A DNA stretch of 64,000 bases. Source: Pythium myriotylum. Lineage: Eukaryota; Oomycota; Peronosporomycetes; Pythiales; Pythiaceae. This document shows positions 17,417 to 64,000 of the stretch, one piece after another. The notes below the pieces were generated by a model. That model had not been told where the DNA came from and did no database searches. It saw nothing but the letters and a program-made list of their open reading frames with translations. Each line of letters starts with the position of its first letter. The first letter of the stretch is position 1. The DNA lies in NCBI GenBank assembly GCA_023091665.1, contig JALJCQ010000003.1:1674001-1738000 (forward strand), given 5' to 3'. Made by a program: the position numbers and the translations under genes.

Positions 17417-19446
17417 TCAACGGCCTTCGCACGTTGAGACGAAGTTGGACTGAACGTAGCCATCACGGATCATTGTCAAGGTACACAAAATGGCCTGAGA
17501 CGTGGGTCGTTGGTGGGATGCGAACGAGAGGCATCGCTTCGCGAGTTGTGAAATCGCAGCCGGACATGACGTGGACAATGTTGGCTGAAGCCCGTCCATG
17601 GCGACTTTACTCATGATCGTGATCTCCGGGAACGCAGAACGGCCGGCGTCAACCATATCCGAAAAAGGGAGGCGATGCGTGTCGAGCTCTGTGAGGATGA
17701 CACCGAAAGAGTAGACGTCACAGGCGGCAGTATAATTGCCCCCGCCGGTAATGACCTCCGGCGCGAGCCAGAGACTGGTGCCCACGCCAGTACTCATCGA
17801 GCAGTTATGAGAGAGATGCCTCGCAACCCCGAAGTCGCTGAGTTTAGCTTGGATCGGAGGCTTGGTCATTAAGACGTTCCGTGATTTGAGATCTCGATGT
17901 ATAACAGAAACCGGCTCAATCGAGTGGGCATAGGCGAGAGCCTCTGCAATATTGATGGCGACAGAGAGCTTTACGAGATCCCATGGTCTGACGGGAGTCT
18001 TGTCCAAATAGGACCGCAGGTCTCCACCATCCATATACTCAAACAGTGCTTGTACGTTTCTACGATGTGTCCATGTAGCACCGACGAATGAAACGATGCA
18101 CGGGTGACTCAACGTTGCGACGAGCTCGATCTCCTCGATGAAAGATGAGATCATCGCGTCAGACACTTGAGGATTCGCGAGGCGTTTAGACGCTAGAAGG
18201 CGATCATGCTGTGTGTCACGGACGAGAAAAACGCTGGCGTGACCTCCGGCGCCTAGGAGCCGGATGTCTAGGACACACTCAACCGTAGTCACCTTTTCAA
18301 ACGGTAAAATTCCGTTCTCAGTGCAGTCCACAGCAGACGATGGATCGGGATAAACTGAATAGGAAATCACTTCGACTTCTTTCGTTGGCCTCCCGCCCCG
18401 CCGCTTGTTGATCAATACGAGCACGATGCAGAGCACTACAGCAGAAGCCACAAGGAGCACAATGAGTAAGGTAGAGCTCTGTTTCGGTGCACTGGCACTT
18501 GAGCTAGATGGCGGAGTTGATGCACTGGGCGGTGATGTAGACGACACTGCACCCGCAACTACAGAAATTTGGGACTCCACGGACTCGTTTGAGCCGACAG
18601 CAGACCTTGAAGCCGAGGAAGATGCCTCCACGTCATGACCAGACGATGAGGTTGTTGGTGCAATACTAGACTTGGTTGGTGCGTATTTGGTCGGAGATGG
18701 CGTCGTTGCTGAAGGTAATGAGCTGTTCTCCGCATTTGCCGAGGTAACATCTGGAATTGGCGGGACGGCCCAGCCAGACTGGTAGTTGTACAGAGGAACA
18801 GAACGCATCAGATCGTCTGTGCATTAGGAAAATAGCAGCCCAACCGCAGTGCGAAAGTCACCTAGACCCTCAGAGGCGGGAAGTGGGCACAACATGCGAT
18901 CGATCAAGATGTAGAGGCGGTCCGAAAGAACAGCGCATTCGCTCGAGCAAGTTTGGAGACTCGTCATGATCTTGACAGCTTTCAACTCAGCGAGGCTGTA
19001 TCTAAGTCTAGGAACGACAGGTTCATCGCCTTTTCGCATTCCACAGCCTCGCTAGGATAGTGGGAGATGAAATCTTCGACGAGATTCGGTGGACATGCCG
19101 CTCCTGGCAGGCGATAGTACCAACAGAAGTCAAGCATCGGCGCCGCGAAAGCCTGGAATGCTGAGTCGATGGCCTTTTTCTCGGTTGCTGTTGTGGACTT
19201 CAGCTTCGAGAGCGCGAGCAACTGGCTCGCCACAGCGCTGCAGTCCGAGTCACTACACATCTTCGAAGCCTGCACAGCGGTCATAACACTGTCGGCTCCA
19301 AAAGCAAACCCCGAACCTGATGAACATTTTGAGACCTCGCTCGAGAGGTTCCCCAAGACGACTGAGTACGGTATGTCGAGTCCTTGAATCGCTTGTGTCC
19401 ACACGAGCATCAGTAGCAAAGGAGCAAAGCACATCGCTCGAGGCAT
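17417..19446 (-). CDS. Class A elicitin-like receptor kinase (TKL), ectodomain frameshift
   Basis: ATG at 19446 opens a signal peptide (MPRAMCFAPLLLMLVW). The ectodomain begins C-x23-C-x4-C (SGFAF..., CSDSDC), like the other class A genes. Around 18990-19020 the reading frame shifts by one base (LDLDTASL to AELKAVKI), with length and cysteine positions of the paralogs kept across the shift. A 45-nt intron (18817-18861) removes an in-frame TAA just before YNYQSGWAVPP. Then come a Ser/Thr-rich stalk, a membrane span (LLIVLLVASAVVLCIVLVLI) and an intact RD kinase: GAGGHASV loop, Lys in ASKRL, HRDLKSRN, DFGVA, APEV. It would be a surface receptor if the shift is an artefact; otherwise it is a young pseudogene. 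It is head to head with the class B pseudogene at 19761. Confidence 0.6.
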
Positions 19447-19760
19447 CACAGTCTCGTTGAGCACTTCGTGGAGATAGGTAAATGACCCGGCGTGCCCCCT
19501 GCTAGGTTGCGGTGCACTATTCTATAAAAGGATAACCTTTGATAATATTATGCTGTCGATGGTGATCAGCCGGTCCACGTTGCATTCATCCAAACAAAAC
19601 GATGTGGCGATATCACATCGTTAGCATCTAAAGAACTGTATAATTACATAGCGTTGAGGAGGTTCAGCTGACGCTCGAGGTCGAAGCCCATCGCGCATGG
19701 TCCGTGGGATTGTCGACTGGATTCATTTCGCTGTCACGCCAGAGGAAGACGTGCCAAGCC
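19447..19760. promoter_or_regulatory. Divergent intergenic region of kinase pair 1
   Basis: 314 bp separate the ATG of the class A gene (19446) from the first plausible ATG of class B (19761). It holds a TATA-like TCTATAAAAG at 19521-19530 and an Inr-like ATTCATTTCGC near 19723-19733, which recalls the oomycete initiator. A shared promoter is inferred, not shown. Confidence 0.35.
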
Positions 19761-21372
19761 ATGCGGATTTTAACGGAGACCGTTACCTGCAACATCAGCG
19801 AGAGTGCGTGGCCCGCGGGCGCCGTCACCCAATGCCTCGCGCAGTCTACAGCGTCGTTGCACTATGAGCTGAGCTACTCGTCGTCGCAGCTGGCCAAGAT
19901 GTGCACGAGCGACGCGTGTCAGAGCATTGTTGCGGTGATCAAGTCGCAAAATCCACGCGAGTGCAACACGGGAGCCAACTGGCTCTATGCCGACTTCCTC
20001 ACGCCTCTCGATGAGATCTGCCACAGAACTAGCGCGCCACCAGCAGCGACTGCGACGGCTATTCCGTCGTCGGCACCGACAACATCTGCGTCGCTGTCCC
20101 CGCCCACAACGGCAACCGCAACACCTGCAGTGTCGAAATCACTACCGACGCCTTCATTGAATGACGACAGCATCAAGTCAGTGACTCCTTCAGCGGACCA
20201 AGGGAGAGCTACTAGTCACCCCAGCAGTGCGCCAAGTCACTCGTCCTCTGGATCATCAGTGAATGAAATGATACACTCGTCGCAGCCGCAGGCTGACACC
20301 ATAACCACTGAACCTCCTCTGCCAACTTCAGCCCCTGCGCGATCAACAGCAAAACCCTCGGCAGGATCGATTGCAATGATCGTGATTGCCTTCGCAGTGT
20401 TCGTTGTGGGTTTAGCTGTGTCAATCAACAAGAAGCGCAGGAACGATCGGCGCTCAAGTAAATCAATTTCCACAAATACTGTGACGAAATCAGCAGTGGT
20501 ATCGCTCGCAAGTACATCTACTGGATCCACCGAGACTCGAACAGGTCCCGATGGCTCTGAAAACAACTCGCTCCATCGAATGCTCGAGCCACTGCGCAAC
20601 TGGCGAGTAGACTCGAGAGACATCAGCGACGTTTCGCCTCTTGATGGCTCATTCTTCCTAGTCAACCTCAACAACGCTCGCGTCGTTGCCTCCAAAAGGA
20701 TGCTGCATGGCCAATCTGACCCTCGAAAACTTAGATCACTTATCGCGGAGATCATGCTCGTCTCCACGCTGAAGCACCCAAGTATTGTTGAGTTTGTAGG
20801 CGTTGCATGGACCCAGCCTTGGGATCTCCAGGCTCTATTCGAGTTCATGCCGCTCCGAGACTTGTGTTCTGTGTTGGCTCAAAGGTGTCCAGCTCCAGGG
20901 TCCCATTGGGACCAACTAAAAGCTGAAGTTGGCGCTTCAAATCGCTGAGGGGCTCGTGTACTTACACTCTTTCAATCCGCCAATCATCCATCGCAACCTG
21001 CAAGCCAAAAAGATTCTTCTGAACGAAAACATGCAGGCTAAAATAAGCGACTTCAGCAGTTCGTTCCATCTGGAAACGACTTCAACGATGGGTGATCACT
21101 CCGTCAAATGGATTGGACCTGAGCTAGCATCTGCGAAGCAGGTTTCGGAGCGCTGTGATGTGTACGCGTTCGGGATACTCCTCATCGAGATGGATACAAC
21201 TCAACCTCTTGACACACACTCCACCAAGCGGTCCACTCTGACTCAACGCCTATCGGCGGTCAGCGACAAGAGAATACACAGGATTGCGCGGCGTAGCTTG
21301 TCTGAGAATCCGACTTATCGGCCGAGTGCACTCGAGCTTGCTTTTGAGTTTCGCCAGATTCTAAAACAATAG
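19761..21372 (+). pseudogene. Class B elicitin-like receptor kinase, decayed
   Basis: The ectodomain has CTSDAC followed by 14 residues and Cys (C-x4-C-x14-C), the elicitin spacing, then a Pro/Ser/Thr stalk and a membrane span (AMIVIAFAVFVVGLAV). One extra A in the run at 20918-20924 shifts the frame in the kinase (QLKAEVG... instead of LKLALQIAEGL). The rest follows in the frame ending at 21372. Kinase motifs are also lost: the glycine loop is absent, HRD is HRN, DFG is DFS, and APE is GPE. The lysine of ASKR remains. The gene is therefore both frameshifted and catalytically dead. It is head to head with the class A gene at 17417-19446, which also carries a frameshift. Confidence 0.75.
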
Positions 21373-21424: not shown

Positions 21425-23233
21425 CTAAAATGCTTTGACAATTTTTCGAAGAATGAAAGCAACCTCTAGGGCGTTGGGGCGGTCGGTAGGACTAGTTGTC
21501 ACACATTTCTCGACGAGAGGCGCGATTTGTGGATGGCACGACGATGATACGCTCGGCTGAAGCTCGCCGCGTGCGACCCGTTGGAGCATGTTAAACTCGG
21601 ATGTTGATTCGCCGAGTTCTGCGAATGGTAGCGCGTGAGTGTCCATCTCAACAAGCAAAATACCGAAGGAGTAGATGTCGCACAGCTCATTGTACTTCCC
21701 ACCCCCGGTAATCACTTCCGGAGCGAGCCACCGACTTGTCCCGATACCAGTCGACATGGTTGCATTCTCAGATTGAAAGCGAGAAACGCCAAAATCGCTT
21801 ATTTTTGCTCGCATCTTGGCGTCGAGAAGAATATTTCGTGCCTTCAGATCTCGGTGAACGACCGGTGGGCTGAATGAGTGGACGTATGCGAGGCCTTCCG
21901 CAACCGCCAGAGCAATTTGGACCTTCATGCGTGTCCACGAAAGGGGTGTGCGATCGAGATGCGATCGTAGATCTCCCTTTGACATGTACTCGAGGAGAAC
22001 TTGCAAGTCTCTAGGGGATGTCCACGCTACTCCGACGAACGTGACGATACTGGGGTGATGCAATGTAGATATGATGCTGACTTCTGCAATTAATGCTCTC
22101 AGCCTCTTGTCGCTGAACTGGTCATGGATGAGCCTCTTGGACGCTAACACGCGATTATCGTTGAACTTGACCAGCATCACGGCTCCTTGAGCGCCACTGC
22201 CGATCAGCGAGATGTCTCGCAGCTCTCGAGCGTCAACACGCCAATTCGCCAACGGTGTAAGCAAAACGGAGAGTTCGTCTGGAGCGCCAGCATGTCGTGG
22301 TAGAGATTGTCCACTCGATCCCGTTCCGGTTGTCGTCAGCTCTGTGTAGATGTCCTGTTCGTTCAATAATTTATTGGCCTTCTTCTTCCTCAAATGTCTG
22401 TACACGAACCACAATCCAAGCAAAACAACAAGGGCGGCAGCGATGACTACACCAATCATCACTGTATGGGATGACGAAGTTGCCACCGATGCCTCATTGG
22501 CGATTTGCCCCGAATCAGATGAGCTCGGCAGGCGCCCCGACTTCTTTCCTGTAAAGGAAGTGCTGCTGTCAGTCGAAGACGACGCTGAGGACGACGATGT
22601 TGGCGACAGGGAAGGTGGGGAAGTGGAATCTCCGGAAGTGGGCGACGGTGTCGTTGGCTCGGAGGTGGACTCGGTCTTCGATGGACTCGGAATCTCCGAC
22701 TTGCCAGATCCAGCAGACGATATCCCGGGTGAAGAAGCAGCAGTTGTCGATGGTGGCTCGGAGGTCTCACCACGTGTTGCTGTCACCGTGGGCTTTGCGG
22801 GCGTTGGGGCAATGCTCGGTGCGGTTGATGGCGTATGTGTGGTCGGTGTCGCAGGAGTAGGTGTGGGAGCAGGAGCAGGCACAGGGGCTGGTGCGGGGGT
22901 TGGAGGCGATTGACTGGGAGATGGCGCAGGCGTTGTCGCTTGAGAGCGACACACAGCCTCCAGTGGCGTGATCATATCCGCGTATAGCTGCACGTGGGCA
23001 GCAGAGCACTCTCGCGGGTTCGCTGCTTTCATGGCGTCGATGATCTCGAGACACGTTTTGACTCGGCAAATTTGTATCATTGTCTTGTAATCGAGCCGGT
23101 ACATGAAGTCATAGTCCACAACCGTCCCCGAGTTCATCAAACAGGAGTCCTGTGTGCTCTGGGGCCAGCGCACGGTCGTATCGCACGGGGCAGCGGCTTC
23201 CGTACGCCGCCGCGCACGGAAGGCCCGTGCCAT
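21425..23233 (-). CDS. Class B elicitin-like receptor kinase (TKL), intact
   Basis: Continuous 602-aa frame from the ATG at 23233. The ectodomain shows CRVKTC, 14 residues, Cys, with further cysteines before and after, matching the elicitin fold. A Thr/Pro/Ser-rich stalk follows, then a membrane span (about residues 255-278, VMIGVVIAAALVVLLGLW), a basic stop-transfer and the kinase. Kinase motifs are complete: GSGAQGAV, ASKRL, HRDLKARN (about 455), DFGVS, APEV, GTSRW. It should be an active membrane Ser/Thr kinase. The N terminus (MARAFRARRRTEAA) is not a convincing signal peptide, so a 5' exon may be missing. It is head to head with class A at 23511, and is most like the class B gene at 37353. 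Confidence 0.8.
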   Translation of the reverse strand: MARAFRARRRTEAAAPCDTTVRWPQSTQDSCLMNSGTVVDYDFMYRLDYKTMIQICRVKTCLEIIDAMKAANPRECSAAHVQLYADMITPLEAVCRSQATTPAPSPSQSPPTPAPAPVPAPAPTPTPATPTTHTPSTAPSIAPTPAKPTVTATRGETSEPPSTTAASSPGISSAGSGKSEIPSPSKTESTSEPTTPSPTSGDSTSPPSLSPTSSSSASSSTDSSTSFTGKKSGRLPSSSDSGQIANEASVATSSSHTVMIGVVIAAALVVLLGLWFVYRHLRKKKANKLLNEQDIYTELTTTGTGSSGQSLPRHAGAPDELSVLLTPLANWRVDARELRDISLIGSGAQGAVMLVKFNDNRVLASKRLIHDQFSDKRLRALIAEVSIISTLHHPSIVTFVGVAWTSPRDLQVLLEYMSKGDLRSHLDRTPLSWTRMKVQIALAVAEGLAYVHSFSPPVVHRDLKARNILLDAKMRAKISDFGVSRFQSENATMSTGIGTSRWLAPEVITGGGKYNELCDIYSFGILLVEMDTHALPFAELGESTSEFNMLQRVARGELQPSVSSSCHPQIAPLVEKCVTTSPTDRPNALEVAFILRKIVKAF

Positions 23234-23510
23234 TGAAGCTGGTTGGTGTCACGAAGGCAATTGAGTTCTGAGGTGATGGCGTGAAGATAGTGGACTGTTT
23301 CCGACGCATACATCCAGTTTCAGAGTGTGGTGCCAAGGCCAGAGGTATGATATCCTGGCGTCTGCTTTGAATCAAGGATCGGAGAATACCACGTGAGAAA
23401 GGCGAATCTGGCCGGCCTGCTGGGGGGTTCCATATCACAGTCCAGTGTTCGAGTGGACGTCGCGGCTGGCTCATGTGGGAATCACAGCGCCTCGTTCCTC
23501 GGCGGCAAGA
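23234..23510. promoter_or_regulatory. Divergent intergenic region of kinase pair 2
   Basis: 277 bp lie between the ATG of class B (23233, minus) and the ATG of class A (23511, plus). Both transcripts must start in or near this gap. No strong TATA or Inr match was seen. A GGCCAGAGG/CCTCTGGCC element lies near 23377-23385. Confidence 0.3.
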
Positions 23511-25658
23511 ATGGCGTGGTGGCTCTTGCTGGTCCATTGGACTGTCCTCGTGGACGTAGCGTCGTCGCTCGAATGGCCGTACTCGGAGGTCGTACCTCAG
23601 CTCGCGGATCAAGTCGCGCAGTGCGCCAAGGTCTCGGGCTTCGAGTTCACCAACGGCACGCTCATCACTGCAGCGCAAGCAGCAGCAACGTGCCCGGATC
23701 CCAGTTGCATCGCTGTCGTCTCGACAATTATCGAGCAGTACGTTGAAAACCTTGACGCCGTTAGCCAAGCGTTGGCGTATAGTCGCTTCGCCATGCCAGT
23801 AGTTTACTTCTGCTGGTTCTTCCGAATGCCCGACGATTTGTGCTCAACCGACCCGTACAATGATTTGGACAACCACTTCCGCACAAAGGACGAAGCATGC
23901 GCGCGAGTGACCGGCATGTCCATCTTCGATACTGAGAAAGACATCGGTAATCACTGGCTCGACTTTTATGAGAAAGGAGAGCTGTGCCCTCAGGAGTGCA
24001 TTGACATCGCGAGGCGATTGACGTTTTTCGGGGCGATAGCGACGTGTGTCGTTAGTAATTACCTGAGGCACAACGCTCACATGTACTACAGCTTCCTCGT
24101 AAATGCAGGATGTATCGACATGTCTGCCGGGGGAACTGATTGGGGATACGCGTATCAACCAGGATGGCCCCTTTTACCAACGGGGCAGTCAGCAACAAGC
24201 GAGCCTCCGGCGCTGCCAGCATTACCCACACTGCCGCCTCCCTTAACGACAGCCCCATCTTCGCCCAACGTTACGAGTTTTGCGCCCGGCGGCGGGTCAA
24301 GTCTTCAAGGTGATGACGAAGATTCAGTTGTGGGGGATAGTAAGACTGCGTCGATTCCGAGGCCACGAACCAGCAGAGTGGAGACACCATCACCGTCGAA
24401 AGCGACCAAAATGACAGCCTACACCAATTCTACTCTCACGCAGTCGATGAACGCCACGAAACGCCACCAATCGTCATATTCCCCAGCCTCTAATGTATCC
24501 ACTGGAACCGCTCGTGCATCGCCGCATTCATCAAGGGATCATGACGACACCGACAGCGGCCCGTCGCCACCGACTATCACTCAAAATGCGAATACACGAA
24601 GCAAGAGCATAATGATCAAGCTCGCACTCACCGCTCCTTCCATCGCGATCGCCACTTTGTGTATCTTGTTCGTCTGGATCAAGAGGCGCCGAAATCGAGC
24701 ATCGAGCAAAGAGCACGACGCCCACGAATCGTACTCGGAGATGACAGGTGAAGCTAGTGATGAGGGAAGCCAGTTTGTTGCGTATCCCGATGGGATAGCA
24801 CTCGAGAAGGCTCTCCCTGTCGACTCAATACGTGATATCCGGATCATTGGGTCAGGTGGCCACGGAATCGTCTACCTCGTCAAAGACAACACTCAAGATC
24901 GTCTGCTGGCGTCGAAGCGTCTGGCGAAGAATCATCAAACGAACGATCAAATTGCTAGCTTTCTACGCGAGATTCAGCTCGTATCAACGCTCAGTCACCC
25001 GTGTATTGTTGCTTTTGTCGGTGCTACGTGGATGCACCGCACGGATATTCAGGCCCTCTTTGAATACATGGATGGTGGAGATTTACGACAGTATCTTGAC
25101 CAAACACCCATCGAGCCATGGAATGCTGGCAAGATCTCTATCGCCCTAAACATCGCCCAAGCCCTAGCCTACGTTCACGCAGCGACGCCAGCTCCGATTG
25201 TCCATCGCGACCTCAAGTCCCGAAACGTTCTGCTTTCCAAATTTCCGATACGAGCCAAAATCAGCGACTTTGGTGTTGCTCGTCGGCTCTCCCAGAACTG
25301 CTCTATGACTTCTGGCGTCGGCACAAGCCGCTGGCTCGCACCAGAAGTCATCACTGGCGGTGGTGACTACACAACATCTTGCGATATCTACTCATTTGGA
25401 GTGGTTTTATCCGAGCTTGACACTCACTCGCTACCATTTGAAGACCTCCGAGGCAATGATGGCACAGCGCTTCCAGAAATTACCATTCTGAGTATGGTTG
25501 CTATCCAAGGTATGCGTCCGACATTGTCTGAATCGTGTCCCCCAGAGATCGCAAATCTCGCTCTTGCGTGTATGTCCACCGATCCCAAGATGCGTCCAGG
25601 TGCTGCTGAGGCCACTGAGGCTCTCGAATTATACCTGCAAGAGACACGCCAGACATGA
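23511..25658 (+). CDS. Class A elicitin-like receptor kinase (TKL), intact
   Basis: The ATG at 23511 gives a signal peptide (MAWWLLLVHWTVLVDVASS) and 715 aa. The ectodomain starts EWPYSEVV and contains C-x22-C-x4-C (CPDPSC), like the first half of an elicitin. A second Cys-rich part has CPQEC, then the conserved YQPGWPL and a long Ser/Thr/Pro stalk. The membrane span is near residues 370-392. The kinase has GSGGHGIV, ASKRLAKN, HRDLKSRN (about 564), DFGVA and APEV, all intact. It is paired head to head with class B at 21425-23233 and tail to tail (67 bp) with the PAN-like gene at 25726. Its closest relative in the window is 34828-37020. Confidence 0.85.
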   Translation: MAWWLLLVHWTVLVDVASSLEWPYSEVVPQLADQVAQCAKVSGFEFTNGTLITAAQAAATCPDPSCIAVVSTIIEQYVENLDAVSQALAYSRFAMPVVYFCWFFRMPDDLCSTDPYNDLDNHFRTKDEACARVTGMSIFDTEKDIGNHWLDFYEKGELCPQECIDIARRLTFFGAIATCVVSNYLRHNAHMYYSFLVNAGCIDMSAGGTDWGYAYQPGWPLLPTGQSATSEPPALPALPTLPPPLTTAPSSPNVTSFAPGGGSSLQGDDEDSVVGDSKTASIPRPRTSRVETPSPSKATKMTAYTNSTLTQSMNATKRHQSSYSPASNVSTGTARASPHSSRDHDDTDSGPSPPTITQNANTRSKSIMIKLALTAPSIAIATLCILFVWIKRRRNRASSKEHDAHESYSEMTGEASDEGSQFVAYPDGIALEKALPVDSIRDIRIIGSGGHGIVYLVKDNTQDRLLASKRLAKNHQTNDQIASFLREIQLVSTLSHPCIVAFVGATWMHRTDIQALFEYMDGGDLRQYLDQTPIEPWNAGKISIALNIAQALAYVHAATPAPIVHRDLKSRNVLLSKFPIRAKISDFGVARRLSQNCSMTSGVGTSRWLAPEVITGGGDYTTSCDIYSFGVVLSELDTHSLPFEDLRGNDGTALPEITILSMVAIQGMRPTLSESCPPEIANLALACMSTDPKMRPGAAEATEALELYLQETRQT

Positions 25659-25725: not shown

Positions 25726-26541
25726 TTACCACCCTAACGGATATGCATAAGCCCCTCGTGAGGGGTTGGCTGAGTTCGTGACCGCGCCTTTCCTAAGGGC
25801 TTTATTTGCGTAGGTTTTCTTGAGCCAACATGTTCCACCGTTTTCCTTTGACCAAGTCGACGCCATGCATCCTGACATCCTTCTGCATTCCCCCCAGCAA
25901 GCTCGCCAGTCTGGACGAAACTTCACTTGTGCCAAATCAGCTCCGATAATTTCGACGTCGAACTGGGTCCTACAATCTAATATCTCCCCCGACATCGCAG
26001 ATCCGTTGAAGGGACCGAATACTGATGGCGTACGGGCGACCATATAATAGCACATTCCTCCACCCTCCTCTGTCCACGTGTACGCTTGGCAGCCCAGATC
26101 ACGATAGTTCTCGCACGAGTAGCTGCAGAGCTCAGCTGACGAGACTTGCTCGCTCATGAAGCTCTCGTTGAGATACCCGAACGCTCCCGTGATTTGTGGG
26201 CCCTGGACACCGCATCGTCCACCGATCGGTCGGTCGAGGGGAACAGCGTTTGCTGGATCCGTGTTTAAATAGATAAGCGTGAACTTGAGGTCGATGAACA
26301 CGTAGGTCGTACACGACCCGGCGGTGGTCGACGGCACCCATCGGAAGGCGACGCAGGAGGAGCTCTTCACGCACGCGTCAATGCACTGCTGCAGAGTCTG
26401 GCCAAGAGTGGTGGCTTCGTGTTTCCCCGTCAAAAGCCGAGGCGATCCGCCCCAACCGAGCGTGCAAGTCTTCGCGGCTTGGGCTGACCACGCAGTCGTC
26501 AGAAGCAATGCGAGGAGTGCGAACACACGGCGCGACGGCAT
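25726..26541 (-). CDS. Secreted PAN/Apple-like cysteine-rich protein
   Basis: 271 aa from the ATG at 26541, single exon, with a clear signal peptide (VFALLALLLTTAWSAQA). Three Cys-rich modules follow, with motifs such as CIDACVKSSSCVAFRW, CSYSCENY..CQAYTW and CWGECRRMSGCMASTW. The pattern C-x3-C-x5-C-x-x-x-x-W and the EN/EGGxC turn resemble PAN/Apple modules of oomycete secreted and cell-wall-associated proteins, which bind carbohydrate or protein. No membrane span or kinase is present, so it should be extracellular. The paralog at 33890-34678 has the same layout. Both lie tail to tail with a class A kinase. Confidence 0.8.
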   Translation of the reverse strand: MPSRRVFALLALLLTTAWSAQAAKTCTLGWGGSPRLLTGKHEATTLGQTLQQCIDACVKSSSCVAFRWVPSTTAGSCTTYVFIDLKFTLIYLNTDPANAVPLDRPIGGRCGVQGPQITGAFGYLNESFMSEQVSSAELCSYSCENYRDLGCQAYTWTEEGGGMCYYMVARTPSVFGPFNGSAMSGEILDCRTQFDVEIIGADLAQVKFRPDWRACWGECRRMSGCMASTWSKENGGTCWLKKTYANKALRKGAVTNSANPSRGAYAYPLGW

Positions 26542-28659: not shown

Positions 28660-29363
28660 TTTAATGGGAATCGCCGTAGGGACCATCGACAGTGTCACGG
28701 TGGTTGTTAGAGCCCTATCTTGGCTCTTCAAGAGAAAGCAATCCAAATCCCGAGTTATTGTCTGAACTGCGGATCAAGTCCATGGTTGTTGAGGTTCAAA
28801 TCGTGTCAAGTTTACATCTTCACACCACCCAAGTATCGTGTCGTATGTTGCCGTTGCTTGGACAACCCCGTCGATTTACGAGCGGCAACCTTCGCTTCCA
28901 ATTTTACAGAACGAATCATGCAAACACAGCCATGGGATATCGTCGAGAAACTGCAGATCGCGGTGGGAATGGCGGAGGGGCTCGCACAATCGCCAACTGT
29001 TCTTCGTGATCTCAAGGCGCCGGAGATATAACTCGATGATGGGATGAAGCCAAAGGTCAGCGACCTCGGCGTCTCTCGTTCTCAATCAGAGAACAAGACG
29101 ACGCACACACACTGGCGTGAGCTGGTGACTGGTCCCGGAAGTCACTGTTGGTGGTATATTTTACACATAGCACTGCGAAATCTTCGAGTTCGGTGTTCTG
29201 CTAGTGACATGACGGCGCGCGTTCTGCCTTACGACTATGTGAACAATGCTTTCTCCGAAGTGATGCTTCTTCGTCTGGTATCTCGAGGAGAATCGCGACC
29301 GCACATTTCTGCAACATCTGATTATGCGGTCGCTAGACTCGCGATGCAGTGTCTCCAACAGTA
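28660..29363 (+). pseudogene. Class B receptor-kinase relic
   Basis: Pieces in several frames match class B kinases in order: a membrane span with basic tail (WLFKRKQSK), VVEVQIVSSLH and SYVAVAWTTPS (N-lobe), then LQIAVGMAEGLA, DLKAPEI followed by a stop, KVSDLGVSRSQSEN (DFG is DLG), and LRLVSRGESRPHISATSD...LAMQCLQQ. Frameshifts and in-frame stops separate them and the glycine loop is gone. It is clearly dead and older than the 19761 pseudogene. Confidence 0.7.
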
Positions 29364-29433
29364 ACCTCGTGGCCGGCCAAATGCGTTAAAACTGTCGTCG
29401 ATTCTCAAATCAGCATGCCAACAGGGTAGTCCA

Positions 29434-32239: not shown

Positions 32240-33580
32240 GGCTGCTGCGGTGGCTCGTCACGAGCGTTTGCCCTCGACTGCTGTACAGCGAAGAGCTCCC
32301 GGGCTTCGAGCTCTAGCTCGCGCAGTGCGCCAACGCAACGAGCTTCCTGTTCCGCCAACGACTCACGGCCCAGTAGCAAGCAGCTCTTAAGATGTGCACG
32401 GAGAGCAGTTGTGGCCAGGTGGCCGTGGAGCTCCTGAGTGGAACGATTCATTTATAACCAACGCTTTCTCATTTGAAAGCTCTAGGTCAGGTGCACCGAT
32501 GGTGAAGTCGAACTGAATTGAACATTTTGCCGAGCCAGCCAGCCGACTCGACTCTATCAACATCACCAGCTCAGGCTAGCCAGAAAGTGAACTACGGGGC
32601 TCTCGTCGGGATTCCACTTGGAAGCATTGGGATTTTCAGTTTCTTCATTGTTTACGTTGCATGCGGAAGCACCCGACTGGAACTGCGTCGGTCCCGATGC
32701 CAAGCCAAGGTTAGTGACTCTGGCGTGGTTCGTCAGCTCTCCGACAGTTTGATGGCGGCAGGTGCTAGAACTAGTCGCTGGTTGGCGCTGGATGTGATCA
32801 TCGGATATGGTACGACGAGGCTTGGGACATCTATTCGTTCGTTGTGGTGCTGTGAGAGTGGACAGCCACTGCGTACCGTTCTGGGACTGTAGGACCGGAG
32901 GCTCCGAGTCGACGCTGCGTGAGATAAAGATGCTAAGTATGGCTGGTCTCGATGGCCTGTAGCCGTCATTCTCAAACTCTTGTCCACCTCAGTTGTCTCG
33001 GGCCCAGCGATGTCTCTCGCACGATCCAGAACAGCGACCAACTACTCTGATGGCGCTAGAGATTGCTGAAGGACTCGTATTCGTCCACTCCTTCAGCCCA
33101 CCAATCGTCCATCGCGACCTCAAGGCGAGGAATATCCTGCTGGACAGCGGAATGCACACCAAAATCAGTGATTTTGGCGTCTCTCGATTGCAATCCGAGA
33201 ACGGAACCATGTCCACGGGAGTCGGTACTAGTCGGTGGCTCGCACCAGAGGTCATCACCGGCGGCGGCGCGTACACGGAGCAGTGCGACATCTACTCGTT
33301 CGGCGTGGTGCTTGTGGAGATCGACACGCATGCTGTGCCTTTTGCTGAGCTCGACGGATCGCTGTCCGATTTTAAGTTGCTGCTGCAAGTGGCTCGAGGA
33401 GAAGTTCGCCCTCAGGTATCGTCGACTTGTGATCCACAGATCGCGAGACTGGTTGAGAGATGTCTGCCCACGTCCGCTCTTGATCGGTCCAATGCTTTGG
33501 AAGTCTCACTCCAACCCCAAAAAGTTCTCAGGACGTTATTCGTCATCCACTTTCGTTATTCGCCATACACTTTCGTGTGA
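32240..33580 (+). pseudogene. Chimeric receptor-kinase pseudogene (class A remains joined to class B kinase half)
   Basis: The 5' part is class A: a signal-peptide-like stretch (RLLRWLVTSVCPRLLYS), then LAQCANATSFLF...CTESSCGQVAVELL with in-frame stops. A membrane span follows (LVGIPLGSIGIFSFFIVYV), then a jump over most of the kinase to QAKVSDSGVVRQLS, and a class A kinase end (CLSHDPEQRPTTLM). At 33050 this fuses to a class B kinase half (ALEIAEGLVFVHSF..HRDLKARN..DFGVS..APEV), which is 395 bp and nearly identical to 38673-39067. After 33444 the similarity drops and the frame ends at 33580. No intact receptor can be made from it. Confidence 0.75.
33050..33444 (+). repeat. Copy of 38673-39067 (395 bp, about 5 differences)
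   Basis: By direct comparison the two stretches differ at about five positions, mostly silent (for example GGC/GGT, GAC/GAT). Sequence on both sides of the block is unrelated (left) or clearly diverged (right). This fits a recent duplication or gene conversion of the class B kinase half. Confidence 0.8.
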
Positions 33581-33889: not shown

Positions 33890-34678
33890 ATGCAGCTCGC
33901 ACGCGTGGTTAGCGTCGTGGCCTTGGCGGTCACGTCGGTCTGCGCGGCCGAGACAACGAAAGCGTGCATCGCCCACAAGGCCAATAGTTATTCCACGCGT
34001 CCAATCGTCGGTCTCCCGGAAGCGGCAGCGTCGGGCCTGACGGCGACCGAGTGCATCGACAAGTGCGGCAAGAGCCCGACGTGCCTCGCGTTCCACTGGA
34101 CGCCTCAGGGCGCGTGCACGACGTACGCGACCGTATATTTCCGGTACTCCTCAGTCGGGTCAAGCAACGAGCCGTTGCCAGCGAGCGGGGCAGTTGTCGG
34201 ACGTTGCCATGTGAACGGGCCAGCTCAAGTCAAAGGAGTGGTCGGGTCCACCAAGTACTATATGTCGGACGCAGCGACCCCCGATATATGCAGCTATGCA
34301 TGCGATTCGTCCATAAACTACTGTGATGAGTACACGTGGACCGACGAGAATGGCGGGACCTGCTACTCCTTAGCCTACCAGTCGCCTGTGGTGCCGGCAC
34401 CTACCGGGGTGACTGCAATCTCTGGCGAAGTCTTGAGGTGCAGGACACAAGCAGATGTGGAGGTGGTGGGGTCAGACATCACCAAAATTGCTCCTCGACC
34501 CGACTGGCGGTCCTGCTGGGGTGAGTGCCGAAGGACTGAAGGCTGCAAGGCATCGACATGGACGAATGAGAATGGAGGCACATGCTCGCTCAAGAAGAAT
34601 TTCACGAAGAGAGCAACGCGCAAAGGTTCGATTACCAACACCCCTCTTCCAGGTCGATGGACGTACGGGTACTACTAG
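33890..34678 (+). CDS. Secreted PAN/Apple-like cysteine-rich protein
   Basis: 262 aa from the ATG at 33890, single exon, with signal peptide (MQLARVVSVVALAVTSVCAA). Three Cys-rich modules have the same motifs as 25726-26541: CIDKCGKSPTCLAFHW, CSYACDSS..CDEYTW and CWGECRRTEGCKASTW, with NGGTC turns. It has no membrane span, so it is probably extracellular or wall-bound. It lies 149 bp tail to tail from the class A kinase at 34828-37020, mirroring the 23511/25726 arrangement. Sequence upstream (33589-33889) holds no other gene. Confidence 0.8.
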   Translation: MQLARVVSVVALAVTSVCAAETTKACIAHKANSYSTRPIVGLPEAAASGLTATECIDKCGKSPTCLAFHWTPQGACTTYATVYFRYSSVGSSNEPLPASGAVVGRCHVNGPAQVKGVVGSTKYYMSDAATPDICSYACDSSINYCDEYTWTDENGGTCYSLAYQSPVVPAPTGVTAISGEVLRCRTQADVEVVGSDITKIAPRPDWRSCWGECRRTEGCKASTWTNENGGTCSLKKNFTKRATRKGSITNTPLPGRWTYGYY

Positions 34679-37020: not shown

Positions 37021-37352
37021 GGCCAGGCAGAATCGGGAAGTGAGCCGGCCTCTGCCAGAGGCCGGCTCACTTCCCGATTCTGCCTGGATCTCTACCCCTA
37101 GAAATCAAAACAATCTGGGTGCAAGTCAAGACCTGCGGCAACGAATACTGATTTCTACTACGCTCATCTCCCCACAAGAGTCACTTTGTCCATTCAGTTT
37201 AGAGAGACCTACGTCGACAGCTGCGCGCATTCGAGTGGTCTCAACGTGACCTCCTGGATCAGTTTCCAGAGTCCTCCCACCTGCACAACCAGATTCATCG
37301 TCGTCGGATTGTTGCCGAATTTTTCTTTGCAGCGCATCCCCGTTGATGGTGA
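37021..37352. promoter_or_regulatory. Divergent intergenic region of kinase pair 3
   Basis: 332 bp lie between the ATGs of the class A (37020) and class B (37353) genes. It contains the 65-bp palindrome at its class A end and a splice-acceptor-like TTTTTCTTTGCAG (37320-37332) near the class B end, which hints at an untranslated or signal-peptide 5' exon for class B. A shared promoter is inferred. Confidence 0.4.
37023..37087. repeat. Perfect 32-bp inverted repeat with 1-nt spacer next to a start codon
   Basis: Arms 37023-37054 and 37056-37087 are exact reverse complements (outer end CCAGGCAGAATCGGG, inner end GGCCTCTG) with a single C between. It lies 2 bp from the ATG triplet of the class A kinase (37018-37020). 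If transcribed, it would form a very stable hairpin in the 5' leader. A fold-back assembly artefact is the main alternative. Confidence 0.9.
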
Positions 37353-42241: not shown

Positions 42242-42297
42242 GCCGAGGAAGGAAGTCCGGGACCCACACACTGAAAATCCCCCGACCGCCAACAGCG

Positions 42298-45372: not shown

Positions 45373-45401
45373 GGTAAGAAAACCGAGTTGACCTCTGGTG
45401 G

Positions 45402-48093: not shown

Positions 48094-48210
48094 AAGAGAT
48101 ATAAACGAGACTTTGATGACTGCCCAATGGACTTTCGTGAGGGTAACTTGTCGTAATCAGAGGCGCAATCTATCTTGGCGTCTGCTGAGCTGGCTGAGAA
48201 GGGCACAAAG

Positions 48211-49419: not shown

Positions 49420-49653
49420 CTCACACATAGAGCGAGTAGAAGCCCGTTTTGAAGAGAAGGAAGGATACTGTATCCACGTTCCGTATCCGTGGGAAAACGT
49501 TCAATTGATGCAAGAAGTTCTCATGTGCCTGACCCCGAGTCCCCTTTTTTTGTTCGTCAGTTGATGGGTTGGTGGGTGACTTCGCGGCGCATCTTCAAGC
49601 GAGTTGACGAGTCGCACGTTTCGTTCAGTTTCCTTTTTCTCGTCGACAGAGAA

Positions 49654-53580: not shown

Positions 53581-54299
53581 TGTGGGACTGTGCGGTCGTC
53601 CAATGTACGATCCCTATCAACTCGCATCACTGTGTCAACGACTATACATAATCCAGCTCACCAACATCGCACTAAAGCGCTTGGGTAATGTGCAGGGAGT
53701 GTACATCACCTATTCTTGGTCTTGGATGGAGATGCTCGAGTGGGTTAATCTAGAGATACATACGTTCTGCGTCTGTCGAGGGCACAACGACAACCTGAGA
53801 GCGTGCTCGACACGTGTCTGGTCTCCCTTCAACCCCCAGCAGTAAAAGTCGGATTCGATGATTCTGCAGCTGATCTTCCAAGCGTTTTTTATCGGCGGCT
53901 TGCAGATGATTCTTCAGTCCATCTTTCTTGGCTGCGTTGCGATTCTGAGACGACTTGTCGGCGTGTGTGAACGAACAAGGCCAACGAACGTAGAAGGGGC
54001 GAAGACGACAGAGTCCGTGGCGAGTCGCAGCAGCACGAAGATTGTCGCGCTGCCACCCACACTGGTCCACGACCAGATCCTGTTGAGGACGTGAAGCACT
54101 TGCCATCGTTGAAGTTGCCTACTGAAATAGCTTCTATCCCTCCAAAATATCTATCAAAAAAATCCAAATATCCAGCGTGAGGGGCGGAGTGACCGCACTT
54201 TCCCAGTTTGGTCATAATCATCCAAACACCCCGTCTGTCCGACTAGCGTGGGTGATTGGGTGGTGTCTCTGATCCGATCCTCTCGCTCTGGAGCTTCTC
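53581..54299. other. 0.7 kb gap, one doubtful minus-strand frame
   Basis: A minus-strand frame (53750-54106) contains a Lys/Ala/Gln-rich stretch (SSQNRNAAKKDGLKNHL) that looks coding, but its N-terminal part does not and no splice model was convincing. No other gene was seen. The START-like gene downstream must have its promoter here. Confidence 0.3.
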
Positions 54300-60043: not shown

Positions 60044-62206
60044 TCATTTCTTCAACCACTTACTCTCGAGCTTCTTCAATTCCACTAACACTGCATGTGC
60101 GTTAGGTCGACTAGTCGATTCATACGAAAGGCATTGCTGGACAAGGACCAAAATTTCTTGAGGGCACGTCGCAGACAGCGTCGGCTGCAGTCCTTGCTGC
60201 GCCACCATGGTCAGAATCGTGATCTCTGGCACCATTGACAAGGTTCGATCTGCCCCGTAGTCCGCAAACGGGATCCGATGCGTGTCAATCTCAGACAACA
60301 CAACACCAAACGAATAGATGTCGCAGGCAGGGCCATATTTCCCACCTCCCGTGATGACCTCCGGTGCCATCCAGCGGCTTGTCCCAATTCCAGTCGTCAT
60401 CGTGAGTTGCTCAGAGAGTGGCCTGGAAATTCCGAAGTCGGTGAGTTTTGCGCGCAAGGGGGACTTTGTCAGCAGGATGTTGCGAGATTTGAGGTCACGA
60501 TGGACAACAGAATTCGGCGCCATAGAGTGTATATACACGAGGGCCTCGGCAATATCGATGGCGACGGACAGCTTCTCGCACGTCCATGGACCCACGGGCG
60601 TCTTGTCAAGGTAGGTGCGGAGATCGCCTCCACCCATGTACTCGAACAGACCCTGCAGATTATTTCGGTTTGTCCAGGTTGCTCCATAGCACGTCACGAT
60701 GCGTGGGTGGTGTAGTGCGGAGTGAAGCTCGATTTCGGCGAGAAGTGTTGCAGTGTTATATTCGGAGATCTGGTTCTTCGCAAGGCGTTTCGAAGCGAGT
60801 CGCTCGCCGGACCGTTTATCGCGAACGAGGTAGACGACCGCATGTCCGCCAGTACCGAGCAATCGAATGTCTTCTATTGATGTGGAAGGCACGGTCTTGA
60901 CTAGTTGGGAAGTCCATGAGGCTCCGTCACTATCGCTAGCGTCGTCGGGTACTGCTACGTATGCTGATGACCCAAATCCAGTATCAGCAACTGACGAATG
61001 AGAGCGCTGCTCAGCATCTCCAACCTTGTATTCGCGACCCCGCCGTCTCCGCATCAAAATTACTCCGACGGCAAGTAACAGAATCAAGGCCGCTGGTATG
61101 CTGATCAGGGTCACGTAATTTGGGCTTGAAGATGCGGTAGCCAGACTATCTGTATCACGGGAAGGTTCGGAAATTTTCGTGCTTTGCTCAGTTGTTCGTG
61201 GAGCAGAAGTTTGGTTGATAGCGTCTTTCGTGGAGATTACAACGACGCTAGGAGAAGCGGCTGGTGAGCTTGGAGTTGTGGAGCTCGGAGAGGGGGTCGC
61301 TTCCCTACCAGCATATGTACCAGGCACCTTGGTTGGCGAGGTTGTCAGCGTTGGTTCTGGTGATGGCAGCGAGGTTTGAGTGACAGACGCAGCGATATTT
61401 TCTGGTGTCTCTGTTGCTGCAGAGCTGTCGACTTCTACGATCACTGATCCAGACCCGTCTTTAGAAACGTGGTTTTCATCCACTGTTGCTTCTGGTGACG
61501 AGGTTATCGTCAATGGAGGCAGTAGCAATGTACCGCTCACTGGGGCTGGCTCAAAGCTGTAAATCCATCGCGAAGAGTTCAGTCTGCAGAATGGCTCGAG
61601 TACCCCCAAGGTCGCAACGGCGCTGTTTGGATCTCGCAATGCCGCTACCAATCCACAAGGCAGCTGGAGGTATCGAAGGCGAGCGGACAAATAGACGCAC
61701 GATGGGACGTCGCACAACTTGGCAATTGTGATGTTCAGGAGCCAATTCAAGATTAAATTCTCGCTTTCCTCGTACAAGTCGAGTCCAGTCTGTTTCGTGC
61801 GGTCAGCAGCGTCCACAGGGTAGTGCGAGATCAGATCCAGACCTGGTGCCTCGGAGCACGGCACATCGAGCTCGCGAGCATACCAGCAATAGTTGAGCAT
61901 GTGCTTGCCGAACCATAAGAAGGCGTCTCCCATGGCTGTCGTCGTAACTCCGGGATGCGAAGACCAGTATGTGCTAATCACTTTGTTCAGAACGGTCGTG
62001 CAACTGGGTTCGGGACACATTCGCCGCATCTGTTCGTTTGTTGGTTTGGAGGCATTGCGAAACGCGAAGCCGGAGGCCGCGCTACACTGCTCCACGTCCG
62101 TTGCGATCGATGAGAGGACGTCGGCGTACGGGCACTCAAGCTGGAACGCATGGCTTGAAGCGAAAGTCGCGACGCCGACGAGACTGAAGATCCATCTCGA
62201 GGGCAT
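60044..62206 (-). CDS. Class A elicitin-like receptor kinase (TKL), intact
   Basis: 720 aa from the ATG at 62206, no introns. Signal peptide (MPSRWIFSLVGVATFASSHA); ectodomain LECPYADVL with C-x22-C-x4-C (CPEPSC), then further cysteines and a Ser/Thr/Pro stalk. The membrane span is at about 360-383 (VTLISIPAALILLLAVGVI), with a strongly basic stop-transfer (MRRRRG). The kinase has GTGGHAVV, ASKRLAKN, HRDLKSRN (about 566), DFGIS and APEV, all intact. The second CxxEC part of the ectodomain is CDVPSC here. It is the most divergent class A copy in the window. It is head to head with the class B gene starting near 62546. Confidence 0.85.
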   Translation of the reverse strand: MPSRWIFSLVGVATFASSHAFQLECPYADVLSSIATDVEQCSAASGFAFRNASKPTNEQMRRMCPEPSCTTVLNKVISTYWSSHPGVTTTAMGDAFLWFGKHMLNYCWYARELDVPCSEAPGLDLISHYPVDAADRTKQTGLDLYEESENLILNWLLNITIAKLCDVPSCVYLSARLRYLQLPCGLVAALRDPNSAVATLGVLEPFCRLNSSRWIYSFEPAPVSGTLLLPPLTITSSPEATVDENHVSKDGSGSVIVEVDSSAATETPENIAASVTQTSLPSPEPTLTTSPTKVPGTYAGREATPSPSSTTPSSPAASPSVVVISTKDAINQTSAPRTTEQSTKISEPSRDTDSLATASSSPNYVTLISIPAALILLLAVGVILMRRRRGREYKVGDAEQRSHSSVADTGFGSSAYVAVPDDASDSDGASWTSQLVKTVPSTSIEDIRLLGTGGHAVVYLVRDKRSGERLASKRLAKNQISEYNTATLLAEIELHSALHHPRIVTCYGATWTNRNNLQGLFEYMGGGDLRTYLDKTPVGPWTCEKLSVAIDIAEALVYIHSMAPNSVVHRDLKSRNILLTKSPLRAKLTDFGISRPLSEQLTMTTGIGTSRWMAPEVITGGGKYGPACDIYSFGVVLSEIDTHRIPFADYGADRTLSMVPEITILTMVAQQGLQPTLSATCPQEILVLVQQCLSYESTSRPNAHAVLVELKKLESKWLKK

Positions 62207-62545
62207 CGTCTTGACTCAACTGTCAGTTGTTTCGAACTGGCTGTAGCCTGGAGCCACTTGCTGGCTTGAGGACGGAGCCGTGTCCACTTCCTCAGGGAGG
62301 GAAACTCGCGCATCTCTCAGAGTGACACACAGCAGATCAGCGACGCTGATCCGTATCACAACCTCCTTCAACTAATAATTTCGTGAAACTATGACCATCG
62401 CTTGATGCATTCAACGTCTTAATCGAGAAAGACACCCTGTCAAATCTAGTTGTCTGAAAAGAGCGAGACGTTCACTGGAACTCGCGTCACCCCTTCCAGC
62501 GACCATGCATCGATTGGGCGAGCCCAGTCTCGAGAATACCTGCAC
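62207..62545. promoter_or_regulatory. Divergent intergenic region of kinase pair 4
   Basis: 339 bp between the ATG of class A (62206) and the first in-frame ATG of class B (62546). The class B frame is open back to a TAG near 62447, and a CCTTCCAG acceptor-like site at 62493-62500 suggests a missing 5' exon. Confidence 0.35.
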
Positions 62546-64000
62546 ATGTCACTCCCAGTGTGCCCCGACGTCTCGGCCACGTGGTCCACGGCCACCGAGA
62601 CCCAATGCCGCGTGGATACTGGCTTCATCTTTTCCTTCTCGTCACCGACGAGCCAGCGGCTTGTCGAAGTGTGCGGCGACCCCGCGTGCATGGAGATCAT
62701 CAACAGCCTTCGTACCAGGAACCCGTACGAGTGCGTCGAAAAGGACGGAGCAACTGCAGGACTCTACGCGACGCTGATCACACCGCTGGATAAGACCTGT
62801 GCAGCTCTCGCGAGCGCGACGGCCCCCGCGACCACAACCGCGGCACCGCAAGCACCACAGGCATCGCCGACATCGACCACGGCGCCAAATCCAGCCACTA
62901 CAACACCACCAGCGACAACAAAAGCGCTGCCGTCGACAAACCCGCCGTCGACTCCCCAGCCGACCTCCGCTGGTAGCTCATCTGCGGCAGCAGACACAAC
63001 GTCGCCAACGCCTACGCCCACGGATACCCAATCGCATTCCAACTCGTCTACAGCATCCCAGGCTCCGTCAGTTCTAACTCCCAACGCAACGATAGCTCCA
63101 ACTCCACTGCCGCTTACCGCGTCCTCCGAATCATCAGTGTCGGTGGATGAATCGTCAAGAGAGGGCACCGCTCGACCTGGCCGAGTGAGCACCGGATCTC
63201 TCTCAGGCCCGGATGCAGTGATCAACACCCAGTCCCAGTCATCGAGCTCATCACTGACGATCCCAATCATATCGATTGTTGGCGCCGTGATTGCTTTCAT
63301 CCTTGCCGCATGGTGGTGGAAGAAGAAGCGACTGCGGCAGTCAGATCCGAAGAGTCTTCGCAATGAAGATTTAGAGTCCACACGTGAGGAAGGGTATACC
63401 GCAGTCGATGACGAGTACGATGGCGACAATGCACTGCTTCCCTTGTTGAAATCGCTTGAACCGTGGCGCATCAGTGTGACTGACATCGACGAGGTCTCAC
63501 TTATCGGAAGTGGATCGTACGGAGCTGTCTTCCTCGTCAAGCTTGAGAGAACAAGAGAACTAGCATCAAAGCGAGTAGGAGCGAGCCAGTGCACAAGCAA
63601 AAGGATCGAGTCGATGATAGAAGAAGCGAAGATCGCTGCATCGCTCCATCACAGAAGCATCATCGACTTCGTCGGCATCGCGTGGACTACTCCGTACGAC
63701 CTCCAAATACTTTTTGAGTACATGCCAAATGGAGATCTGCGGCAGTACCTCGATGATCACGCACTCAGCAACGCCCGATGGAATGCGATGAAACTCCGAA
63801 TAGCACTACAGATCGTTGAAGGATTAGCGTACGTCCACTCGTTCGATCCGCCAATCGTGCATCGTGATCTCAAGGCCCGAAATGTGTTGCTTGACGCCGA
63901 GATGAACGCAAAGATCGGAGACTTTGGAGTTTCTCGCGCTATGTCGGAGAATGCGACGATGACAACTGGCATTGGAACAAGTCGCTGGCTCGCTCCTGAG
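62546..64000 (+). CDS. Class B elicitin-like receptor kinase (TKL), runs off right edge
   Basis: From the ATG at 62546 (MSLPVCPDVSATW) 485 codons stay open to the window end. The ectodomain has CGDPAC, 14 residues (ending NPYE), Cys, the elicitin spacing. A Thr/Pro/Ala-rich stalk follows, then a membrane span at about 237-258 (IPIISIVGAVIAFILAAWWW) and the kinase with GSGSYGAV, ASKRV, HRDLKARN (about 438), DFGVS and APE at the very edge. No lesion was seen. No signal peptide is visible in this frame. It is head to head with class A at 60044-62206. Confidence 0.8.
   Translation, partial: MSLPVCPDVSATWSTATETQCRVDTGFIFSFSSPTSQRLVEVCGDPACMEIINSLRTRNPYECVEKDGATAGLYATLITPLDKTCAALASATAPATTTAAPQAPQASPTSTTAPNPATTTPPATTKALPSTNPPSTPQPTSAGSSSAAADTTSPTPTPTDTQSHSNSSTASQAPSVLTPNATIAPTPLPLTASSESSVSVDESSREGTARPGRVSTGSLSGPDAVINTQSQSSSSSLTIPIISIVGAVIAFILAAWWWKKKRLRQSDPKSLRNEDLESTREEGYTAVDDEYDGDNALLPLLKSLEPWRISVTDIDEVSLIGSGSYGAVFLVKLERTRELASKRVGASQCTSKRIESMIEEAKIAASLHHRSIIDFVGIAWTTPYDLQILFEYMPNGDLRQYLDDHALSNARWNAMKLRIALQIVEGLAYVHSFDPPIVHRDLKARNVLLDAEMNAKIGDFGVSRAMSENATMTTGIGTSRWLAPE

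What the first reader, a model, noticed from the sequence alone, without database searches (positions are those of the whole stretch)
17417..64000. Four head-to-head pairs of class A and class B elicitin-like receptor kinases
In every case where both classes are present as genes they are divergent and adjacent: 17417-19446(-)/19761-21372(+), 21425-23233(-)/23511-25658(+), 34828-37020(-)/37353-39170(+), 60044-62206(-)/62546-64000(+). Gaps between ATGs are 277-339 bp. A (long two-part ectodomain) and B (short elicitin domain) are never paired with their own class. The repeated geometry suggests shared promoters and a two-component receptor, comparable in logic to paired plant NLRs (analogy only). 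I know of no description of such a paired system, but cannot search.
Basis: partly seen in the sequence, partly recalled or inferred. Interest (0 to 1): 0.88.

Follow-up and report, generated by a model that had tools for sequence, protein, structure and literature searches.

The report
Paired elicitin-domain receptor kinases in an oomycete
This water-mould genome carries an old two-gene cassette, two different cell-surface kinases with elicitin-type outer domains placed back to back, that has been copied and kept together several times, which hints that the two receptors work as a team, although that has not been tested.

Summary
Four head-to-head A/B pairs lie in the window with ATG gaps of 277-339 bp; pair 1 is broken on both sides and B62 runs past the window end. 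Genome searches found 7 A and 6 B receptor kinases; every B adjoins an A and every A a B. A fifth divergent pair sits on contig C23. A tandem pair and a spare A break the divergent rule.

A and B are sister kinase clades, also present in Pythium insidiosum. Over five intact pairs their distances agree (r 0.87, 3 of 120 permutations; 0.54, 60 of 720, with broken pair 1). Synonymous sites are saturated while the closest kinases stay about 70% identical, so both partners are old and constrained. B has one elicitin domain, A two in this genome.

Shared promoter: not supported. No motif is shared between intergenic regions, and such gaps are ordinary in Phytophthora, where divergent neighbours are seldom co-induced. 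A heteromeric lipid or sterol receptor is plausible but untested. Up to ten of 14 other divergent TKL pairs are also mixed-class. Linkage left over from an inverted duplication remains nearly as likely.

The parts
17417..18823 (-). A17, kinase-side open frame of a broken class A gene (frame also lost in second half of ectodomain)
   Evidence: HRD/DFG/APE motifs kept
18982..19446 (-). A17, N-terminal open frame: hydrophobic start plus first elicitin-like domain, ends at an in-frame stop
19447..19760 (.). intergenic region of pair 1 (314 bp)
19761..20948 (+). B19, first open frame of a broken class B gene: elicitin domain, linker, TM, start of kinase
   Evidence: Pfam Elicitin 33.8 bits
20920..21372 (+). 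B19, second frame: degenerate kinase piece without HRD/DFG
21425..23233 (-). B21, class B receptor kinase (602 aa)
23234..23510 (.). intergenic region of pair 2 (277 bp)
23511..25658 (+). A23, class A receptor kinase (715 aa): hydrophobic start, two elicitin-like domains, TM, kinase
25726..26541 (-). PAN-domain protein at the tail of A23; mirror partner of 33890-34678
   Evidence: Pfam PAN; 42% identical to the other
28945..29424 (+). relic of a class B kinase
   Evidence: tblastn, 37% to B37
32692..33040 (+). relic of an A-like kinase (two pieces)
   Evidence: tblastn, 44-46%
33050..33538 (+). relic of a class B kinase, 89% to B37
33890..34678 (+). PAN-domain protein at the tail of A34
34828..37020 (-). 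A34, class A receptor kinase (730 aa)
37021..37352 (.). intergenic region of pair 3 (332 bp)
37353..39170 (+). B37, class B receptor kinase (605 aa)
60044..62206 (-). A60, class A receptor kinase (720 aa)
   Evidence: Pfam Elicitin 26.3 bits over cut-off
62207..62545 (.). intergenic region of pair 4 (339 bp)
62546..64000 (+). B62, class B receptor kinase; continues beyond the window (to C3:1738306, 586 aa from this ATG)
   Evidence: Pfam Elicitin 29.2 bits

Best explanation
Shown: A and B are two sister classes of single-pass receptor kinases with elicitin-type ectodomains, arranged as an old cassette, head to head in five of six pairs. Both classes predate the split from Pythium insidiosum, the cassette has been duplicated as a unit, and both partners are kept under purifying selection. 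Inferred: the cassette arose by inverted duplication of one elicitin-domain TKL kinase. It is kept because the two products work in one signalling unit. The elicitin domains (one in B, two in A) bind a lipid or sterol, or an elicitin, outside the cell. Binding brings A and B together, and their two active-looking kinase domains activate each other. Duplicated pairs then diversify their ectodomains to sense different ligands. Close adjacency, rather than one common promoter, is the conserved feature.
Against: One pair is tandem and one A is supernumerary. Adding broken pair 1 lowers the mirror-tree to r 0.54 (60 of 720). No intergenic motif is shared. No expression or interaction data were available. 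Mixed-class divergent pairs occur in other TKL families here. Clustering of TKL genes is known in P. infestans (PMC3019232 section 18). P. insidiosum A proteins with a visible elicitin-like region (P0061, P0102, P0144) show a single one, so the two-part A ectodomain is not general. The second half of A matches the class B profile only weakly (hhalign probability 12 and 0.3). A shared broken pair is a 1 in 6 event by itself.
Confidence: 0.45

Rival explanations
1. Linkage is only a birthmark. An inverted duplication made two head-to-head paralogues; further block and inverted duplications copied them. A and B signal separately and nothing selects for their adjacency.
For: A and B clades are sisters (93/80). 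Inverted duplicates of other TKLs show the process: 4 of the 14 other divergent pairs examined are closest relatives. Pairs 2 and 3 are an inverted block copy with a PAN gene. Intergenic sequence has diverged completely. Divergent small-gap genes in P. infestans are seldom co-induced (PMC3597505 passages).
Against: Linkage has survived saturation of synonymous sites, rearrangement to tandem order on C23 and the split from P. insidiosum. All 6 B genes that keep an elicitin domain adjoin an A.
Confidence: 0.42
2. Ordinary TKL gene cluster in which neighbours happen to fall in divergent order.
For: Divergent neighbours are 17 of 66 among non-A/B TKL hits, the random share. TKL clusters are common in oomycetes (PMC3019232). 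Three of the 14 other divergent pairs examined have open frames only 173-308 bp apart.
Against: 5 of 8 neighbour relations involving A or B are divergent and all 5 are A with B. First-ATG gaps are 180-339 bp in all 5, against 421-4622 bp in the 14 other divergent pairs examined. A and B distances agree.
Confidence: 0.1
3. Assembly or haplotype artefact multiplies one pair.
For: The same genome holds near-identical copies elsewhere (C23 ectodomain-only copies, identical over 819 bp; C39 and C22 kinases).
Against: Kinases of different window pairs differ at 30% or more of residues and at saturated synonymous sites, far beyond alleles.
Confidence: 0.01

Closest known systems
Oomycete-specific TKL receptor-like kinases (P. 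infestans kinome, PMC3019232: section 18 and passages seen)
   Same: Membrane TKL kinases, large family, often clustered
   Different: In the text seen, the extracellular domain named is the LRR; 'elicitin' has 0 occurrences in the search listing and 'head-to-head' 0 in the main text
SSRK1-elicitin sterol sensing in Phytophthora sojae (Pei 2024; original not held, seen through passages of PMC12662980 and PMC12223298)
   Same: Receptor kinase signalling that depends on elicitins binding a sterol outside the cell
   Different: There the elicitin is a separate secreted protein; a P. parasitica homologue of SSRK1 (PPTG_09207) is listed among LRR kinases. Here elicitin domains are fused to the kinase and two receptor classes are paired
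Elicitin-kinase fusion proteins in databases: 'elicitin-like protein' of Pythium porphyrae (P0013), P. insidiosum PINS_up023530, P43SY_004336, ATCC90586_011675
   Same: PF00964 plus kinase in one protein
   Different: P0013, P0006 and P0009 fall outside the A and B clades; ATCC90586_011675 (P0015) is class B
IRK1/IRK2 isoflavone receptor and co-receptor of P. sojae (one passage of PMC12223298)
   Same: Two oomycete receptor kinases acting as receptor and co-receptor
   Different: LRR ectodomains; no gene pairing is mentioned in the passage seen
Paired plant NLRs (PMC4246468, search listing only; otherwise recalled)
   Same: Gene pairs encoding cooperating receptors
   Different: Intracellular NLRs, unrelated proteins; analogy of layout only

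Membership tests
Elicitin / elicitin-like domain (PF00964), class B | Sequence match to the family profile | tested here: met
   B19 33.8 and B62 29.2 bits over cut-off 25; B21 23.6 and B37 19.3 below it; B1467 25.9 over, B736 22.1 below; profile of B hits sylvaticin at 6.1e-5 and cryptogein at 0.0018-0.0019
Elicitin / elicitin-like domain (PF00964), class B | Six conserved cysteines | tested here: met
   Six invariant Cys in 4 of 4 window B domains; 4 residues between the third and fourth, 14 between the fourth and fifth
Elicitin / elicitin-like domain (PF00964), class B | Elicitin fold | tested here: met
Elicitin / elicitin-like domain, class A | Elicitin-like first domain | tested here: met
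Elicitin / elicitin-like domain, class A | Second elicitin-like domain in tandem | tested here: met
   Half 1 against half 2: hhalign probability 92, P 5e-7. Second halves of A738 and A734 alone score 16.7 and 15.0 bits to PF00964, E 0.0077 and 0.025, below cut-off; second half against the B profile is weak and its model has low confidence
Elicitin / elicitin-like domain | Sterol or lipid binding | not testable with these tools
   Needs a binding assay
Oomycete TKL receptor-like kinase | Extracellular domain, one TM helix, catalytically complete TKL kinase | tested here: met
   Pfam kinase matches, TM stretch by simple hydropathy, K/HRD/DFG/APE in 11 of 11 intact A and B kinases
Oomycete TKL receptor-like kinase | Signal peptide | tested here: inconclusive
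   Hydrophobic N-terminus in A23, A34, A60, A1469, B736 and the A17 ATG frame; absent in B19, B21, B37, B62, B1467, A734, A738, with no credible upstream exon within 700 bp
SSRK1-type LRR receptor | LRR ectodomain | tested here: not met
   No LRR family in the Pfam scans of the window proteins
Head-to-head gene pair with bidirectional promoter | Divergent genes with starts within 1 kb | tested here: met
   ATG gaps 249-339 bp in 5 of 5 divergent A/B pairs (180 bp for the C23 pair if the first in-frame ATG is used)
Head-to-head gene pair with bidirectional promoter | Conserved shared regulatory sequence | tested here: not met
   No shared words clearly above shuffles in the five intergenic regions; the best case, two 8-mers shared by 3 of 5, reaches p 0.065
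Head-to-head gene pair with bidirectional promoter | Co-expression of the two genes | not testable with these tools
   No expression data held

The most novel reading that the evidence does not exclude
The A/B cassette encodes an obligate heteromeric receptor in which sterol- or lipid-binding elicitin domains have been built directly into two partner kinases. Pair duplication has produced several parallel receptors of different specificity in one genome. It would be a self-contained counterpart of the SSRK1-elicitin system.
Probability: 0.3. Interest if true: 0.75.

Novelty: new variant of a known kind. Interest (0 to 1): 0.52.

Why it matters
Oomycetes carry very large receptor-kinase families, and for most members neither ligand nor partner is known. 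A pair that stays together through duplication names the partner in advance and points to a ligand class (sterol or other lipid, through the elicitin fold). Whether A and B form one receptor can therefore be tested directly. It also gives elicitins, best known as secreted sterol carriers that plants recognise, a possible built-in sensory role in the organism's own receptors.

Tried and rejected
Shared promoter: BLAST and word counts over five intergenic regions found nothing clearly above shuffles. Missing signal-peptide exon: no credible candidate within 700 bp upstream of the seven SP-less genes; the single hit for B21 lies antisense inside A23. Relatives of the A34 ectodomain by single-sequence protein search: none at E 0.001; this proved uninformative, since a kinase-based search did find A-clade relatives. 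Foldseek against PDB gave no E-value below 0.001 for either model; 14-3-3 rows for the A model cover its low-confidence second half and were taken as chance helical matches. P. sojae original SSRK1 paper: not held. Papers on elicitin-domain kinases or on paired receptor kinases in oomycetes: none seen in the listings of ten searches; this covers only openly licensed PMC text, and most listed papers were not opened. Orientation in P. insidiosum and in metagenome contigs could not be read with the tools allowed.

Limits of the counts. One search used 140 of the 150 rows plus B19; the 10 dropped rows were second pieces of split kinases and the two relic pieces C3:1706855 and C3:1707050. One search scored 141 of 497 first-look candidates, so neighbours may be missed. 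No separate search was made with a B ectodomain; the B count rests on the kinase searches and the Pfam elicitin search. A lone single-elicitin kinase, C3:2056403, fell beside A at 92/74 but outside A plus B and was not counted. Of the 17 other divergent TKL pairs, 14 were fetched and examined; C15:688766, C19:487140 and C9:3459759 were not. Of the 10 of 14 called mixed-class, C13:501006/505694, C25:310617/315272 and C3:73309/77505 lie in an unresolved fork, and C17:1828118/1831971 is weakly placed. The cross-species tree used 47 of the 187 retrieved proteins; the two searches behind them listed 120 of 239 and 120 of 874 matches. B19's first kinase piece alone stood for pair 1 in the 6-pair test. 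dS values are saturated and only say 'old'. The two Pfam stretches in A738 and A734 were counted at a permissive E of 10.
Full report
What is there. The window is C3:1674001-1738000 of a 58.7 Mb, 55-contig genome, an oomycete by its elicitins and its closest kinase relatives. It holds four head-to-head pairs of TKL receptor kinases. Intact class A proteins (715-730 aa) have a hydrophobic start, a roughly 210-residue Cys-rich ectodomain, a Ser/Thr/Pro-rich linker, one TM stretch and a kinase. Intact class B proteins (586-605 aa from the ATG) have a roughly 85-residue elicitin domain, then the same plan. ATG gaps are 314, 277, 332 and 339 bp. Pair 1 is decayed on both sides: A17 loses frame in the second half of its ectodomain; B19 shifts frame in the kinase and lacks the catalytic motifs in its second piece.

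The whole genome. Searches with an A kinase, a B kinase, two A ectodomains and the Pfam elicitin model, and fetched DNA, give 7 A and 6 B receptor kinases, counting the broken pair and leaving out relics. A fifth divergent pair lies on C23 (B 736501-738462 minus, A 738625-740784 plus; ATG gap 249 bp, or 180 with the first in-frame ATG). Two loci break the divergent rule: B 1467604-1469487 followed in tandem by A 1469959-1472211, and an extra A at 734256-736484, tail-to-tail with the C23 B. Two ectodomain-only A frames also occur on C23 (1473695, 1519869). So every B adjoins an A and every A adjoins a B, but only five pairs are divergent.

Is it more than chance? Among 66 neighbour relations of other TKL hits, 17 are divergent, 34 tandem and 15 convergent, as random orientation predicts. 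Among 8 relations involving A or B, 5 are divergent, and all five are A with B. The A/B first-ATG gaps (180-339 bp) are shorter than those of the 14 other divergent TKL pairs examined (421-4622 bp), although three of those have open frames only 173-308 bp apart. The five pairs are copies of one cassette and not independent.

Age and co-inheritance. In a 65-kinase tree A and B are each one clade, and the C23 736/738 partners branch deepest in both. With other species added, both C23 lineages have metagenome relatives of their own (A: P0097, P0131; B: P0016, P0021, P0022, P0027). Over the five intact pairs the distance matrices agree (r 0.87, 3 of 120 permutations for kinases; r 0.71, 3 of 120 for ectodomains). 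Adding broken pair 1 gives r 0.54, 60 of 720. Pairs 2 and 3 are mirror images of one block that also carries a PAN gene (42% identity). Between A23 and A34, and between B21 and B37, dN is 0.22 and 0.20 in the kinase with dS saturated. Both partners have therefore been kept for a long time. Intact copies are paired with intact (5 pairs), and the one broken A with the one broken B; by itself that is a 1 in 6 event. Kinase relics lie between pairs 2 and 3: two of class B, one of them beside an A-like relic.

Other species. The kinase searches and a 69-row tree place P. insidiosum proteins in both clades. A: PINS_up007750, 007759, 007771; P43SY_001046, 001049, 001050. B: PINS_up007762, ATCC90586_011675. 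The four PINS proteins lie on a contig of the same length (465,076 bases) within 22 consecutive locus-tag numbers, so A and B appear linked there too; orientation was not seen. Uncultured relatives fall in both clades, including P0097, which has the two-part A ectodomain (142 bits). The P. insidiosum A proteins P0061, P0102 and P0144 show a single elicitin-like region. The best reading is that an inverted duplication of an elicitin kinase produced A and B before these species split, and that the second A domain was gained, or lost, in part of the lineage.

Mechanism. All 11 intact A and B kinases keep the catalytic residues, so neither class looks like a pseudokinase partner. The elicitin fold suggests a sterol or lipid ligand. 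In P. sojae, sterol is sensed by SSRK1 together with secreted elicitins, and assembly of that complex goes with calcium and MAPK signalling (passages of PMC12662980; original not held). The most likely mechanism is that A and B form a heteromeric lipid or sterol receptor with built-in elicitin domains. The steps from ligand binding onward are inference. I put joint function at 0.45 and birth-linkage without joint function at 0.42.

Against a shared promoter. The five intergenic regions share no motif clearly above shuffles. In P. [quoted passage not shown] A gap near 300 bp is therefore ordinary.

Other mixed-class pairs. Of 14 other divergent TKL pairs examined, 4 are closest relatives in the tree and 10 are not, 3 of the 10 being unresolved. 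Divergent pairing of unlike TKLs is thus not special to A/B.

Unexplained. In each of the six A/B pairs exactly one partner has a recognisable hydrophobic start. It is A in the window pairs and in the tandem pair, and B in the C23 divergent pair. Read by eye, P. insidiosum and metagenome relatives resemble the C23 pattern: B proteins P0015, P0016 and P0022 begin with a hydrophobic stretch, while A proteins P0061, P0097 and P0102 do not; B protein P0027 also lacks one. No upstream exon candidate was found. With two lineages this may be chance or mis-called starts, but it should be checked by 5' RACE.

Novelty. Elicitin-kinase fusions already exist as database entries, and TKL clusters are known. 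In the listings of ten literature searches I saw no description of elicitin-domain receptor kinases as a paired system. I rate it a new variant of a known kind.

Noticed in passing
window A/B pairs; C23:736501-740784; C23:1467604-1472211: In each of six A/B pairs exactly one partner has a clear hydrophobic start (signal peptide), and which partner has it differs between the window lineage (A) and the C23 divergent pair (B).
   Followed up: partly
window 37023-37087: Perfect inverted repeat with arms of about 32 bp and a one-base centre directly upstream of the A34 start codon, read by eye (my notebook says 33).
   Followed up: no
C23:1473695-1474591 and C23:1519869-1520960: Two ectodomain-only class A frames end right after the ectodomain; the two copies are identical over 819 bp. 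They could be soluble A ectodomains or truncated genes.
   Followed up: partly
C13:427893-449468 and C13:501006-507493: Four further divergent TKL pairs with a constant 4.7-5.0 kb spacing between kinases; in three the members are not closest relatives, in the fourth this is unresolved. Possibly another mixed-class pair family.
   Followed up: partly
C22:1258001-1274000: Cluster of single-elicitin receptor kinases of a different kinase clade; several ORFs begin close to the first elicitin cysteine without a signal peptide.
   Followed up: partly
C1:2480441-2556984: Cluster of 22 elicitin matches, many in equal-scoring copies on both strands.
   Followed up: no
window 40437-55727: Related ORFs of about 260-380 aa (40437, 42762, 47311, 49852, 54900) share a D-L-F-P-Y...R-x-R-x-D-like motif read by eye: an unnamed tandem family between pairs 3 and 4.
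   Followed up: no
P. insidiosum P0144 (P43SY_001050), P0109 (PINS_up007771): Gene models that join a PF16683 domain, an elicitin-like region and a class A kinase; either a true fusion or joined neighbours.
   Followed up: no
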